A stretch of 64,000 nucleotides of DNA from contig DVJB01000041.1 in NCBI GenBank assembly GCA_018710845.1, positions 34,194 through 98,193 of the forward strand, in the 5' to 3' direction. The first letter of the stretch is position 1; the number at the start of each line of letters is the position of its first letter. The DNA comes from Candidatus Onthomonas avicola. GTDB taxonomy: Bacteria; Bacillota; Clostridia; Oscillospirales; Oscillospiraceae. The position numbers and the translations under genes were made by a program. The notes under the pieces were generated by a model that did not search any database, was not told the DNA's origin, and was given only the letters and a program-made list of their open reading frames with translations. Shown one piece after another: positions 17,647 to 64,000 of this stretch.

Positions 17647-20343
17647 TTAACGCAAGGTGATCGTCTTGCTGTGTCCGGCGCTCTTGGAGCTGCCGCGGTA
17701 GGCCTCCACTTTGTAGGTGAACGTGCCCCGCTTGCCGCGAGCGCTCGTGTCGGTAAAGGTGTTGACGCCGCTGCCGCGGACATAGCCGACCTTTGTATAA
17801 CCACTGTTGCCGCTGGCCCGGTAGATGTTATAGCCGCTGCAGCTAGGAATGGTGTTCCAGTGAACTGTGACACCGGTGCTGGCCTGGGTCAGCGTCCGAA
17901 TTGTGGGTGTGTCCAGGCGAATGAGACTGTCTGATACCCGGTAAATGCTCTTATACGCCCCGCAGAAGGCTACCACGCGGTAAGTATAGGTCGTTCCGCC
18001 GTTAGCCTGGACCGAGGTGTCGGTGAATCGGGTGGCAGTAGCGCCCCGAACGACGCCTACAGTCATATAACTGCCGTTTCCAGTGCGGCGGTAGATGTTG
18101 TAGCCGCTGGCGCCTGGCGTCTGTTTCCAGATTAGGTTGATGCCAGCGTGGGAGTTGCTCGTGCTGGTTACAGTCGGGGCGGCAAGGTGTTGGATGGTCA
18201 GACCTGTGCCGTTGTAATTGCTCAGACTGGACCCGTTCACCGCTCGAACGGTATAGGTATAGTGCCGCCCAGAGGTGACGCCGGAGTTGGTGTAGCTCGT
18301 GCCGGTGACCGTATTGATTTTAACCCAGCCGCTGTCGAGTGTCTTGCGGTAGACATTGTACTTCGTCGCGCCGGTCACACCCTTCCAAGTCAATTTGACA
18401 CCGTTGGCCACATTCTCTACGCCAACCAGCGTCGGGTTGGAGAGCCGGACCAAGCTGGGGGAGACCCGGTAGATGCTTTTGTACGAGCCGTTATAGGCCA
18501 CTACGCGGTAGGTATAAGTCTTTCCACCGTTGTTTTTGACGGAGGTATCGGTAAAACTGGTGGTGTTGCCATTCCGGACGATGCCTACAGTCGTATAGCT
18601 GCCATTTCCGGTGCGGCGATAGATGTTATAGCCGTTGGCACCCGGGGTGCGTTTCCAGGTCAGAGTAACCCCGGCACCGTAATTGGAGATTCCCGTCACG
18701 GTTGGCGCGGAGAGGTGACGGATGGTCAGGCCGGTAGAGTCATAGGAGCTTTGACTGAACCCAGTGACGGCCCGGACCGTGTAAGTATACAGTCGCCCAG
18801 AGGTGACGCCGCCGTTGGTATAGCTGGTACCGGAGACTGTGTTGATCTTTTGCCAGCTGCCGCCCAGTGTCTTGCGATAGACATCGTACTTGCGGGCGTT
18901 GGAGACGGCGCTCCAAGTCAGCTTGACACCGTTGGCCACATTTTCCACGCTGCGCAGCGTCGGTGTGGAGAGGTTAAGGCGGTAGTCGCTGCTGGCCATG
19001 GGATGGCGGGATGTAAAGCTGCTGCTGGTATAGTCCAGATCAGTCTCATATGAGGTGTTCCAACTATTGAAGCGAATGTGCTCGTCGTCAAAGTTGGCCG
19101 GGCAGCGAAGGAAGTACTGATAGCTGGAACTGCCTGATTCGGCATCCCAGGTGGAATCCACATTATAGTACCGGCCGTTGATTTCAACGATGTTCCAACT
19201 ATGGCGCTGGCTGTCACTTACATAGAATCCATACCCGGCAACAACGCGGGCGTCGATCCCCTCTTCCAGCATCATGCGGTAAAACAGCAGTGAATAGCCC
19301 TGGCAAACGCAGGTCTTTTTGACGATCGCACCGTAGGCTGTCTGTTGCAGCCCATAGCTCATGTCATTTAGGTGTTCATAGTCATATGTCACATTCTTGC
19401 AGATCCAGTCGTAGACGGCGCAGATCTTTTCATAGTCTGTCTTGCCGCTCAGATTCAGGCTCTTCCGGAGGTTGGAAACATAGGTGTCCACCTGCTTTTC
19501 CTGACTGGCGTTCGTGAAGTAGTCAAAAGTGATATAGAGGGTGATCCGATAAGTGCCGCCGCTGTAGGAACTGCTGACCTCGGCACTGTAGGATTTCCAG
19601 TGCCACATCAGATAGTCGCCCTCTTTGGGGTTGCCGGTATGGTTCAGCGCGTAATTTTGAATGATGTACCACAGCCGCTCAGAGGTGACGTCTTGACTGT
19701 CAGTATAGGTGACAGTAAAGGAGCGAATACGGTTTTTCATATTGTTCCGGATTGCGGTACCGGCAGAGGAGGCAGAGGCACAGACGGCGTTATGGACAGT
19801 ATATGCGTCCGAAACCTCGTCAGTCTCCGTGATAGCGGCGGGAGTGACCGGGTCAAGCTGTCCCTCATAGAGGGGGTTGACCATGGAAAAGGTGAGATAT
19901 TCTGTCTCTTCCTCCTCGGTCTCGGACTCCAAAACAGGCGGTTGTGTTTCCTCTGCGGGTGCTGTCGGCTCCGTGACGGGGTTCTCTGGTTCCCCGTCCG
20001 GGAAGGCCGGCTCTTCAACGGGGTCCTCGGACTCCTCCGGTTCCTCGATCGGGAGAGTCGGTTCTTCAGCGGGGTTCTCTGGTTCCTCGGCCGGTACGGT
20101 TGGCTCTTCGGCGGGAATTTCAGGTTCCTCAGCAGGCTCTGTCGGTTCTTCAGACGTCTCTTGCGCTGGAGATTCCGAATCCTCAAACGGGGCTTCTTCA
20201 GGGGCGGGCGTCTGCTCAGACGTTTCCGTTGTTGTTTCGTCTGGCTGCTCGGCCTCTACCGCGAGGGTTGGCACCGGCAGGCACGAGAGTGCCATGAACA
20301 GCGCCAGAAGCAGGAGAGATGCGCGCTTACATAAGTTTGGCAT
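17647..20343 (-). CDS. Secreted transglutaminase-like protein with Pro/Glu-rich linker and about five FN3-like repeats
   Basis: Signal peptide (MPNLCKRASLLLLALFMALSCLPVPTLA); Cys-His-Asp triad context KKTCVCQGYSLLFYRMM / RHSWNIVEINGRYYNVDSTWDAE; repeats of 'LTWK..PGANGYNIYRRTGNGSYTTVGIVR'. Confidence 0.88.
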   Translation of the reverse strand: MPNLCKRASLLLLALFMALSCLPVPTLAVEAEQPDETTTETSEQTPAPEEAPFEDSESPAQETSEEPTEPAEEPEIPAEEPTVPAEEPENPAEEPTLPIEEPEESEDPVEEPAFPDGEPENPVTEPTAPAEETQPPVLESETEEEETEYLTFSMVNPLYEGQLDPVTPAAITETDEVSDAYTVHNAVCASASSAGTAIRNNMKNRIRSFTVTYTDSQDVTSERLWYIIQNYALNHTGNPKEGDYLMWHWKSYSAEVSSSYSGGTYRITLYITFDYFTNASQEKQVDTYVSNLRKSLNLSGKTDYEKICAVYDWICKNVTYDYEHLNDMSYGLQQTAYGAIVKKTCVCQGYSLLFYRMMLEEGIDARVVAGYGFYVSDSQRHSWNIVEINGRYYNVDSTWDAESGSSSYQYFLRCPANFDDEHIRFNSWNTSYETDLDYTSSSFTSRHPMASSDYRLNLSTPTLRSVENVANGVKLTWSAVSNARKYDVYRKTLGGSWQKINTVSGTSYTNGGVTSGRLYTYTVRAVTGFSQSSYDSTGLTIRHLSAPTVTGISNYGAGVTLTWKRTPGANGYNIYRRTGNGSYTTVGIVRNGNTTSFTDTSVKNNGGKTYTYRVVAYNGSYKSIYRVSPSLVRLSNPTLVGVENVANGVKLTWKGVTGATKYNVYRKTLDSGWVKINTVTGTSYTNSGVTSGRHYTYTVRAVNGSSLSNYNGTGLTIQHLAAPTVTSTSNSHAGINLIWKQTPGASGYNIYRRTGNGSYMTVGVVRGATATRFTDTSVQANGGTTYTYRVVAFCGAYKSIYRVSDSLIRLDTPTIRTLTQASTGVTVHWNTIPSCSGYNIYRASGNSGYTKVGYVRGSGVNTFTDTSARGKRGTFTYKVEAYRGSSKSAGHSKTITLR
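17700..18960 (-). repeat. Tandem FN3-like coding repeats (about 270-bp unit, higher-order pair)
   Basis: Alternating modules 'GVKLTWKGVTGATKYNVYRKTL' and 'GVTLTWKRTPGANGYNIYRRTG' recur with high nucleotide similarity. Confidence 0.8.
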
Positions 20344-30696: not shown

Positions 30697-31368
30697 TTGA
30701 CCTACAAAGAGGAATTTATCACCTTTATGGTGCGCTCCGGCGTGCTCACCTTTGGAGACTTCACCACCAAGAGCGGCCGGAAGACCCCCTATTTCGTCAA
30801 CACCGGCAACTATAAGACGGGCGCGCAGGCCGCCCGCCTGGGCGATTACTACGCCGCCTGCGTGCAGGAGAACCTGCCCGACGGCATCACCGCCCTCTTC
30901 GGCCCGGCCTACAAGGGCATTCCGCTGGCCGTGACCACCGCCGCATCCCTCTACCGCAACTATGGCCGTGACCTGCCCTACTGCTTCAACCGCAAGGAGG
31001 TCAAGGACCACGGCGAGGGCGGCTCCATGGTGGGATACAAGCCCCAGGACGGGGACAAGATCGCCATCATTGAGGACGTCGTCACCGCCGGCACCGCCGT
31101 GCGCGAGTCCATCGCCCTGTTTGAGCATGTGGCGAAGGTGGACATCCGCGCCCTCTTCGTCTCGGTGGACCGGATGGAGCGCGGCACGCGCGACTGCTCC
31201 ACCCTGGACGAGCTGCGCCAGGACTACGGCATCCAGGTCTACCCCATTGTCACCGTGCGCGAGATCATCGACTATCTCTATCAGCGCCCCGTCGACGGCA
31301 GGGTGCTCATCGACGACGCGATGCGCGAGCGGATGGAGGCGTATCTCACCGCCTATGGAGCCCGGTAA
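30697..31368 (+). CDS. pyrE: Orotate phosphoribosyltransferase
   Basis: FTTKSGRKTPYFVNTG, LFGPAYKGIPLAVTTAASL, IAIIEDVVTAGTAVRE (PRPP motif). Confidence 0.95.
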   Translation: MTYKEEFITFMVRSGVLTFGDFTTKSGRKTPYFVNTGNYKTGAQAARLGDYYAACVQENLPDGITALFGPAYKGIPLAVTTAASLYRNYGRDLPYCFNRKEVKDHGEGGSMVGYKPQDGDKIAIIEDVVTAGTAVRESIALFEHVAKVDIRALFVSVDRMERGTRDCSTLDELRQDYGIQVYPIVTVREIIDYLYQRPVDGRVLIDDAMRERMEAYLTAYGAR

Positions 31369-32086
31369 GCCCGAGCGCGCATCCGACCCGCAGCGCGCCA
31401 AGAGCATCCACAGCGGCCACCGCAAGCGGGTGCGCCAGCGCTTTCTGGAGCACGGCGGGGAGGCGCTGGATGACTACCAGCTCGTGGAGCTCATCCTTTT
31501 CTACTCCCGCCCGCAGGGGGACGTGAACCCGCTGGCCCATCAGCTCGTCGCCCGCTTCGGCAGCCTGAAGGGGATTCTGGACGCCTCCACGCAGGAGCTG
31601 GAGCAGGTGATCGGCGTGAGCGACAACACCGCCGCTCTCTTCAAGCTCTTTTACGAGGTGATGCTCCGCTACCAGCGCAGCGCCCAGACGCCGGGGACCA
31701 TCATCAACAGCAGCGAGGACGCGGGGGAGTACCTGCGCCCCTGCTTCGTCGGCGCGCAGACCGAGCTGGCCTATCTCCTCTCGGTGGACGCCAAGGGCAA
31801 GCTGCTCGGCTGCGACCTCGTCAACCGCGGCGCGGCGGACGCCGTCCTGCTCGACCAGCGCCGCGTGGTGGAGCTGGCCATCCGCCGCCGGGCCAGTCAG
31901 GTCTTTCTCGCCCACTGCCACACCAGCGGTCTGGCCGTCCCCTCCCAGGAGGATATCTGGGCGACCCAGCGCATCGCCCACACCCTCGCGCAGCTGCACA
32001 TCCGCCTGACCGACCACCTCATCTTTGCCGATAACGACTATGTCTCCCTCGCCCAGTCCGGCATTCTGGAGATACGGCCGATGTGA
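31355..32086 (+). CDS. radC: RadC/JAB-family protein
   Basis: RKRVRQRFLEHGGEALDDYQLVELILFYSRPQGDVNPLAHQLVARFGSL... VFLAHCHTSGLAVPSQED (HxH...SxxD JAMM); overlaps pyrE by 14 bp. Confidence 0.92.
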   Translation: MEPGKPERASDPQRAKSIHSGHRKRVRQRFLEHGGEALDDYQLVELILFYSRPQGDVNPLAHQLVARFGSLKGILDASTQELEQVIGVSDNTAALFKLFYEVMLRYQRSAQTPGTIINSSEDAGEYLRPCFVGAQTELAYLLSVDAKGKLLGCDLVNRGAADAVLLDQRRVVELAIRRRASQVFLAHCHTSGLAVPSQEDIWATQRIAHTLAQLHIRLTDHLIFADNDYVSLAQSGILEIRPM

Positions 32087-32118: not shown

Positions 32119-32409
32119 GACGGCCGGCGTTTTCGCCGGCCGTCTGCGTGTCGACAAAGTCGACACGCTCGAACAAAATCTGCGATTTTGTTCGAAATAT
32201 GCGGCCGAACCGCGCGCCCCTGCGGGGCACACTCCCGGCCTCCCTGTGTTTTTGGGCCGGTACACGCCCGTCCCAAAAACGGATTTCACTCTATTTTGTT
32301 GCTACCGCAACAAAACTCCTGCGGAGTGCTTCCCGAACTTTTCATTTTCATTTAGAATTGACAAATATGCTTTTCGACAGACTGACGGCCGGCGTTTTCG
32401 CCGGCCGTT
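32119..32409. repeat. Multi-hairpin intergenic element, copy 1 (complete), bracketed by duplicated 25-bp hairpins
   Basis: GACGGCCGGCGTTTTCGCCGGCCGT at 32119-32143 and 32384-32408; internal hairpins A 32146-32168, B 32169-32195, C 32203-32240, D 32249-32279, E 32294-32315; terminal motif TTTTCGACAGACTGA 32371-32385. Confidence 0.75.
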
Positions 32410-55648: not shown

Positions 55649-55979
55649 CCCTGCAGGGTTTCTCTCCCTGCGGGGCGCTTCAGACTGTCGAAAAAGGTCT
55701 CACCGAGTTTGGCTCGAAGAGCCAAATAGAGTTTAGTTTATTTTTGGCACGGGCATGTACCCCCCAGGGGGCCTTCTCTCGCCCCTGTGGGGCGATTCAC
55801 CTTGACCGGGCCAAAAATACTGATAGTCCGACGAGTGTGCGGATTTTTAGAACAAAAATCCGTGCGCGTGGGAGGACTGCAAGCTCGCGCAAATGCTTGC
55901 ATTTGCGCGAAAGGCTGTCAAAAACACTTTTTTGACAGCCTCACGCACCCCGCAGGGTTTCTCTCCCTGCGGGGCGCTT
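55649..55979. repeat. Multi-hairpin intergenic element, copy 2 (complete, opposite orientation), bracketed by 32-bp direct repeats
   Basis: CCCYGCAGGGTTTCTCTCCCTGCGGGGCGCTT at 55649-55680 and 55948-55979 (31/32 identical). The interior reverse complement aligns with copy 3 over about 135 bp and structurally with copy 1. Confidence 0.85.
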
Positions 55980-63833: not shown

Positions 63834-64000
63834 AGCGGCTGGACCAGTGTCCGGCCGCTGGAGGCTGTCAAAAAGTGTTTTTGACAGCCTTTCGCGCAAA
63901 TGCAAGCATTTGCGCGAGTTTGCAGTCCGACTGCGCGCACGGATTTTTGTTCCAAAAATCCGCACACTTGCCGGACTATCAGTATTTTTGGCCCGGTACA
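63834..64000. repeat. Multi-hairpin intergenic element, copy 3 (truncated by window end)
   Basis: Terminator-like hairpin AGCGGCTGGAC-CAGT-GTCCGGCCGCT (63834-63859), then AGGCTGTCAAAAAGTGTTTTTGACAGCCT / CGCGCAAATGC...GCATTTGCGCG / GGATTTTTGTTCCAAAAATCC / TTTTTGGCCCGGTACA, nearly identical to the reverse complement of copy 2. Confidence 0.85.

What the first reader, a model, noticed from the sequence alone, without database searches (positions are those of the whole stretch)
32119..32409. Structured repeat family, copy 1: five-hairpin element with same layout but diverged sequence
Directly visible: the spacer 3' of radC holds hairpins A GCGTGTCGAC-aaa-GTCGACACGC, B TCGAACAAAATC-tgc-GATTTTGTTCGA, C GGCCG..GCCCC-tgc-GGGGC..CGGCC, D TTTTTGGG...CCCAAAAA, E TTTTGTTGC-tacc-GCAACAAAA, and a terminal TTTTCGACAGACTGA. 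Copies 2 and 3 have the same order with different but still-pairing bases: A GGCTGTCAAAAA/TTTTTGACAGCC, B CGCGCAAATGC/GCATTTGCGCG, C AGTCC..GGATTTTTG/AAAAATCC..GGACT, D TTTTTGGC/GCCAAAAA, E TTTGGCTC/GAGCCAAA. Compensatory change at nearly every stem means secondary structure (RNA or single-stranded DNA) is what is conserved. I cannot name a described family it belongs to; novelty is therefore an inference.
Basis: seen in the sequence. Interest (0 to 1): 0.87.

Follow-up and report, generated by a model that had tools for sequence, protein, structure and literature searches.

The report
Hairpin-duplicating mini-transposon in terminators
The five-hairpin repeat is a small non-coding jumping element, present in dozens of copies in this gut bacterium and related to a family spread across its bacterial family, that lands in the hairpins ending genes and duplicates the whole hairpin so that the gene's stop signal is probably kept.

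Summary
Window 32146-32315 holds five perfect hairpins (A-E), with related copies at 55681-55942(-) and 63861-64000(+). It is more than a structured repeat. It is a MITE-like element, 32144-32384, with imperfect terminal inverted repeats (CAGNCTGTCRAAAA). It is flanked by a direct duplication of an entire locus-specific hairpin: 24 nt, 32120-32143 and 32385-32408, a terminator-like hairpin whose T-tract lies only outside the right copy.

The own genome has some 70 copies. In 23 of 37 measurable ones the hairpin is duplicated, and a congener has an empty site with a single hairpin. IS1182-family transposons of the same bacterial order have the same ends: all 28 left ends examined abut a hairpin, and 9 of 21 have the whole hairpin duplicated. 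This is the outcome drawn as 'pathway b' in a model for IS1272.

The internal D-E structure recurs in 97 of 301 genomes (56 of 106 genera) of the host family. Stems are strongly covarying and no Rfam family matches. Wobble pairs are almost absent and G.T equals A.C, so the stems evolve as DNA palindromes, which argues against a conserved RNA.

Open points: no IS1182 co-occurrence, the role of the conserved core, and copies without terminal repeats.

The parts
32120..32143 (+). left copy of the duplicated target hairpin ACGGCCGGCGTTTTCGCCGGCCGT (no T-tract after it)
   Evidence: identical to 32385-32408; duplicate detection
32144..32384 (+). type-1 MITE-like element, copy 1
32144..32160 (+). 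left terminal inverted repeat (CTGCGTGTCGACAAAGT; other copies TCAGCGTGTCGACAAAG)
   Evidence: compared with IS1182-family ends
32146..32168 (+). hairpin A (the left end folded on itself)
32169..32195 (+). hairpin B
   Evidence: pairs counted
32203..32240 (+). hairpin C (two-part stem with internal loop; some copies carry an extra module here)
32248..32280 (+). hairpin D with conserved loop CCGGTACACGCCCG (some copies carry an extra module here)
32294..32315 (+). hairpin E
32370..32384 (+). right terminal inverted repeat CTTTTCGACAGACTG
   Evidence: same end as IS1182-family elements
32385..32408 (+). right copy of the duplicated target hairpin; keeps the T-tract (TTTCTGT) and so is the likely working terminator of the gene at 30962-32086
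55681..55942 (-). type-2 element, copy 2 (with the extra module in hairpin D)
55948..55979 (-). left copy of duplicated hairpin AAGCGCCCCGCAGGGAGAGAAACCCTGCGGGG
55649..55680 (-). right copy of that duplicated hairpin
63861..64000 (+). type-2 element, copy 3, cut by the end of contig C22; the matching right half with the same flanking hairpin is the end of contig C63 (L063)

Best explanation
It is a non-autonomous DNA transposon (MITE) with IS1182-type ends that targets palindromes. [quoted passage not shown] Gap repair then copies the whole stem-loop on both sides. The hairpin is therefore duplicated, and the terminator's A- and T-tracts stay outside the pair. Termination should survive in both directions, which makes the insertion nearly harmless. 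The internal hairpins A-E are maintained as DNA palindromes: they evolve by paired, Watson-Crick-only changes. A structural role in transposition (cruciform or single-stranded transposase substrate) is the likely reason for selection, with palindrome-correcting template switching as an alternative driver. Shown: the repeat family, the terminal repeats, whole-hairpin duplication, an empty site, the same behaviour in IS1182-family elements of the order, the covariation and the lack of wobble pairs. Inferred: the enzyme, the cruciform intermediate, preserved termination and the role of the internal hairpins.
For: Duplication: 23 of 37 copies with both flanks have direct repeats scoring 13-38, where the maximum of all mismatched flank pairs is 12; nearly all are single perfect hairpins of 19-38 nt, and the rest include short repeats of 6-9 nt. 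Empty site: congener G025 has one hairpin where L046 has hairpin-element-hairpin. Enzyme lead: the own genome's only hit to PF05598 or PF01609 among the transposase models tried is a decayed IS1182-family gene (NF033551, E=6e-63) that ends in ..ACAGTCTG directly before a terminator-like hairpin. Autonomous relatives have ends CAGTCTGTCAAAAAAC / TTTTTTGACAGACTG; all 28 left ends abut a hairpin, and 9 of 21 with both sides in the locus have the whole hairpin duplicated about 1.5 kb apart. Literature: IS1272 (IS1182 family) targets stem-loops, and joining at the 5' foot is predicted to duplicate the whole stem-loop (PMC5678879, Fig. 13 pathway b); TnSha1, carrying IS1272, targets terminator hairpins (PMC4923244). 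Tails: T after the right hairpin 0.43 and A before the left 0.36, against background 0.22 and 0.19 and 0.23 and 0.24 inside the element. Nested case: a type-2 element in hairpin A of a type-1 element, with hairpin A duplicated. DNA rather than RNA: G.T equals A.C.
Against: IS1182 genes and the element do not co-occur across 301 genomes (33 with both, odds ratio 1.2, p=0.5), and G025, rich in copies, has no PF05598 or PF01609 hit; the helper may be lost, missing from drafts, or another enzyme. The autonomous elements lack the D-E structure, so the MITE is not a simple deletion derivative of them. Many distant copies have the B-E core with no terminal repeats or duplication, often directly after a stop codon and leaning to the sense strand (17: 6). 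No transposition or transcription was observed. Known IS1272 insertions remove the hairpin instead of duplicating it.
Confidence: 0.82

Rival explanations
1. A conserved structured RNA (sRNA or 3'-UTR element) that happens to be repeated: the hairpins act in the transcript of the upstream gene.
For: Strong covariation with conserved loop sequences (CCGGYACAYGYCCG in D, TGCGAGGC after E) across 56 of 106 genera. Copies without terminal repeats often start right after a stop codon, before the native terminator, and lean to the sense strand, 17: 6.
Against: Almost no wobble pairs, and G.T equals A.C: 15 and 19 states (P=1e-4 if a 3:1 excess of G.U is assumed), 4 and 5 cells, 2 and 1 cells. Copies with terminal repeats have no significant orientation bias. 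Whole-hairpin duplications and an empty site show DNA insertion. No Rfam family.
Confidence: 0.12
2. The stems covary because replication template switching keeps correcting imperfect palindromes, not because structure is selected; the element is a plain selfish MITE.
For: Stems are perfect Watson-Crick palindromes with paired changes and hardly any intermediates. In genus g35 hairpin B changes whole blocks of 5-6 paired bases between copies.
Against: Loops, internal loops and the order of hairpins are conserved over 56 genera, which correction alone does not explain.
Confidence: 0.25
3. The core (hairpins B-E up to TGCGAGGC) is mobile on its own by another route, for example a Y1/HUH (IS200/IS605-like) transposase recognising hairpins, and IS1182-type ends were added in some lineages.
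For: Multi-copy cores without terminal repeats in genera g35 and g47 and in genome G111; no IS1182 co-occurrence.
Against: No conserved target or cleavage motif was seen at the core's ends (by eye), and no Y1 gene was linked to it (not tested). Copies without terminal repeats may be eroded MITEs.
Confidence: 0.2
4. Ordinary REP/BIME-type or terminator repeats, or chance palindromes.
For: Intergenic, palindromic, multi-copy.
Against: Five different hairpins in fixed order, 206-330 bp, with terminal repeats and target duplications. Rfam scans give no match at gathering.
Confidence: 0.02

Closest known systems
IS1182 family, IS1272 and TnSha1 (PMC5678879, PMC4923244)
   Same: Palindrome or terminator targets without sequence consensus; the IS1182-family relatives found here have the same end sequence CAGNCTGTC.AAAAA as the element; transposase model NF033551 matched in the host.
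   Different: IS1272 replaces or deletes the stem-loop and gives no duplication; here the whole stem-loop is duplicated, which those authors drew only as a hypothetical pathway b. The element encodes no transposase and has a five-hairpin interior absent from the autonomous elements.
Bacterial MITEs (general; review PMC10969869)
   Same: Short, non-coding, terminal inverted repeats, target duplication, intergenic, multi-copy, strong secondary structure.
   Different: Target duplication is an entire hairpin of 19-38 nt; a complex interior conserved across 56 genera; stems perfectly Watson-Crick paired.
SPRITE, BOX and RUP repeats of Streptococcus pneumoniae (PMC10969869)
   Same: Structured intergenic repeats, terminator-like hairpins, nested insertions.
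   Different: Different sequences and host; here the host's own terminator is duplicated rather than carried by the element.
REP sequences as IS targets (PMC1525189)
   Same: Insertion sequences using hairpin-forming palindromes as targets.
   Different: There the target is one repeated sequence; here any hairpin of unrelated sequence serves.

Membership tests
MITE | short non-coding element with terminal inverted repeats | tested here: met
   206-330 bp, ends CAGNCTGTCRAAA / TTTYGACAGNCTG; no Rfam or tRNA gene in the window
MITE | target site duplication | tested here: met
   23 of 37 copies above all mismatched flank pairs
MITE | polymorphic presence and empty sites | tested here: met
   empty site in G025 for L046; hits reading through the L045 junction in several congeners; flanks mostly not shared with the G025 copies
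MITE | mobilised by an identifiable autonomous element | tested here: inconclusive
   ends and hairpin targets match IS1182-family elements, but no co-occurrence and a different interior
IS1182 family | encodes an IS1182 transposase (NF033551) | tested here: not met
   the element is non-coding; only a decayed gene elsewhere in the own genome
IS1182 family | palindrome target preference | tested here: met
   28 of 28 left ends of relatives and most element copies abut hairpins
Rfam RNA family | match above gathering score | tested here: not met
   below gathering only chance-level hits
Structured RNA under selection | covarying pairs including G-U wobble on the transcribed strand | tested here: not met
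   covariation strong, but G.T not in excess over A.C
Structured RNA under selection | transcript and processing | not testable with these tools
   no RNA data available
IS200/IS605-derived element | no target duplication and a Y1 transposase cleavage motif | tested here: not met
   duplications present for copies with terminal repeats; copies without terminal repeats remain open
ISfinder entries | sequence match in ISfinder | not testable with these tools
   ISfinder is not held here

The most novel reading that the evidence does not exclude
The B-E core is a new kind of structured mobile module spread across a large family of gut bacteria. It is kept as exact DNA palindromes and can move both inside IS1182-type ends, with whole-hairpin duplication, and without them, next to stop codons. 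It would act as a DNA-structure substrate or a regulator of 3' ends in its own right.
Probability: 0.25. Interest if true: 0.78.

Novelty: new variant of a known kind. Interest (0 to 1): 0.62.

Why it matters
It gives natural, multi-copy evidence, with an empty site, for structure-directed transposition that duplicates an entire stem-loop. For IS1272 this outcome was only drawn as a possibility. It suggests how a transposon can use terminators as safe landing sites by copying them, and it offers a widespread set of covarying DNA palindromes in which selection on DNA structure can be separated from selection on RNA. It also explains why assemblies of these gut bacteria break at such repeats.

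Tried and rejected
Known RNA: Rfam at gathering and by E-value gave nothing.

Conserved 3'-UTR RNA for copies with terminal repeats: rejected as the main reading because of G.T/A.C symmetry and no significant strand bias.

PF13751 in the own genome: no hit; PF05598 and PF01609 gave the single decayed gene.

MITE as an internal deletion of the autonomous IS1182 elements: D-E model negative there.

Co-occurrence with IS1182 as proof of the helper: failed.

Hairpin B of copies without terminal repeats as a copy of the host flank: suggested by L209 and L236, but in genus g35 the arm ends and inner part are constant, so not general.

Paper searches found no description of this element; ISfinder, which I recall listing duplications of 0-60 bp for IS1182, could not be consulted.

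Full report
OBSERVATION. The sequence at 32119-32409 holds the five hairpins and the terminal TTTTCGACAGACTGA exactly as described. Copies 2 and 3 are at 55681-55942 on the minus strand and from 63861 on the plus strand, where the contig ends inside the element. In the own genome (2.39 Mb, 72 contigs) type 1 gives about 20 long matches and type 2 about 50. Rfam has no match at gathering, and the best sub-threshold hits to copy 1 are chance-like.

Each side of copy 1 carries the same 24-nt hairpin ACGGCCGGCGTTTTCGCCGGCCGT (32120-32143, 32385-32408); only the right copy is followed by T's. Other copies are flanked by other hairpins, each specific to its locus and present on both sides. For 37 copies with both flanks, direct repeats were scored against all mismatched flank pairs: the mismatched maximum is 12, and 23 copies score 13-38. 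Nearly all of these repeats fold as one perfect hairpin. A few copies have only short repeats of 6-9 nt. In the congener G025 the site of L046 is empty and has one hairpin, where G000 has hairpin-element-hairpin. Most G025 copies are not at sites shared with G000. In one nested case a type-2 element sits in hairpin A of a type-1 element, with hairpin A duplicated. This is insertion of a mobile element.

THE LIKELY ENZYME. The ends are imperfect inverted repeats, CAGNCTGTCRAAAA. Of the transposase families tried (PF13751, PF05598, PF01609), the own genome has a single decayed gene of the IS1182 type. Its right end ..ACAGTCTG directly abuts a terminator-like hairpin. Thirty-five related loci were found, mostly in Oscillospiraceae and other Clostridia. 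Their ends are CAGTCTGTCAAAAAAC and TTTTTTGACAGACTG. All 28 left ends abut a hairpin, and 9 of 21 with both sides available have the whole hairpin repeated about 1.5 kb apart. [quoted passage not shown] TnSha1 targets terminator hairpins (PMC4923244). Against a simple helper story, IS1182 genes and the element do not co-occur among 301 genomes, and the autonomous elements lack the D-E structure.

STRUCTURE. Pair counts exceed shuffles within each subfamily and far more so across the host family. The D-E model finds 97 of 301 genomes and 56 of 106 genera. The loop of D (CCGGYACAYGYCCG) and the motif after E (TGCGAGGC, or CTGCGGAG in type 1) are conserved while the stems are not. Wobble pairs are nearly absent, and G.T is as rare as A.C. 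A transcript-level structure should tolerate G-U on one strand (general knowledge), so the stems behave as DNA palindromes. Either DNA structure is selected, or template switching repairs the palindromes, or both. Two optional modules, in C and D, are shared by both types, and L047 joins a type-1 hairpin A to type-2 B-E, so modules recombine.

GENE CONTEXT. Copies lie near gene ends. In the own genome tandem neighbours give 11 sense and 8 antisense, with 12 convergent sites. For distant copies with terminal repeats it is 8 sense and 4 antisense, with 20 convergent. T's follow the right hairpin and A's precede the left one, while the element's own edges are at background. Both genes at a convergent site would keep a hairpin followed by a T-tract; this is inference, and termination was not measured.

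OPEN POINTS. Of the distant copies, about 30 of 64 keep hairpin repeats next to the ends. Others show the B-E core without terminal repeats, often straight after a stop codon and before the native terminator, with a lean to the sense strand (17: 6). They may be eroded elements or a second way of moving. Genera are counted in a sample of 301 genomes drawn from the family, the genomes are mostly drafts that break at these repeats, and the gene calls used for orientation are a GC-position heuristic.

Noticed in passing
63861-64000 and L063 (G000 C63 end): Contigs C22 and C63 end inside the two halves of one element and share the same flanking hairpin (AGCGGCCGGACACTGGTCC...), so they are probably neighbours in the chromosome; many other contigs of this assembly also end in these elements.
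   Followed up: partly
L087:906-1890 (G000 C29:60705-61690): Decayed IS1182-family transposase (left part missing, internal deletion), right end next to a terminator-like hairpin.
   Followed up: yes
L194, L198, L202, L221, L265-L270 and L206, L209, L236: Cores without terminal repeats directly after stop codons; in one genus hairpin B is TCAA-variable-CCCGCTTCGCTGGG-variable'-TTGA, the 5-6 variable bases differing from copy to copy but always complementary, with a conserved bulged T.
   Followed up: partly
L047 (G000 C11): Recombinant copy: type-1 hairpin A joined to type-2 hairpins B-E.
   Followed up: partly
L012-L020, L028, L031-L038, L044 and others: Two optional stem modules, CCCCAAGGGCACTTTGTCGCCGCC.. 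in C and CAAGGTGAATTGCCCCGCAGGGGC..GGGGGCCC in D, present or absent independently in both subfamilies.
   Followed up: no
L095, L108: IS1182-family elements whose left end is doubled, head to head (a 35-nt hairpin) in L095 and head to tail in L108; hairpin A of the MITE looks like the head-to-head form.
   Followed up: no
L197:133-319: Ribosomal protein L10 leader (RF00557), near several copies of the element.
   Followed up: no
window 17933-18760: A 300-bp direct repeat at 70% identity, 528 bp apart, inside a long minus-strand reading frame (17647-20343).
   Followed up: no
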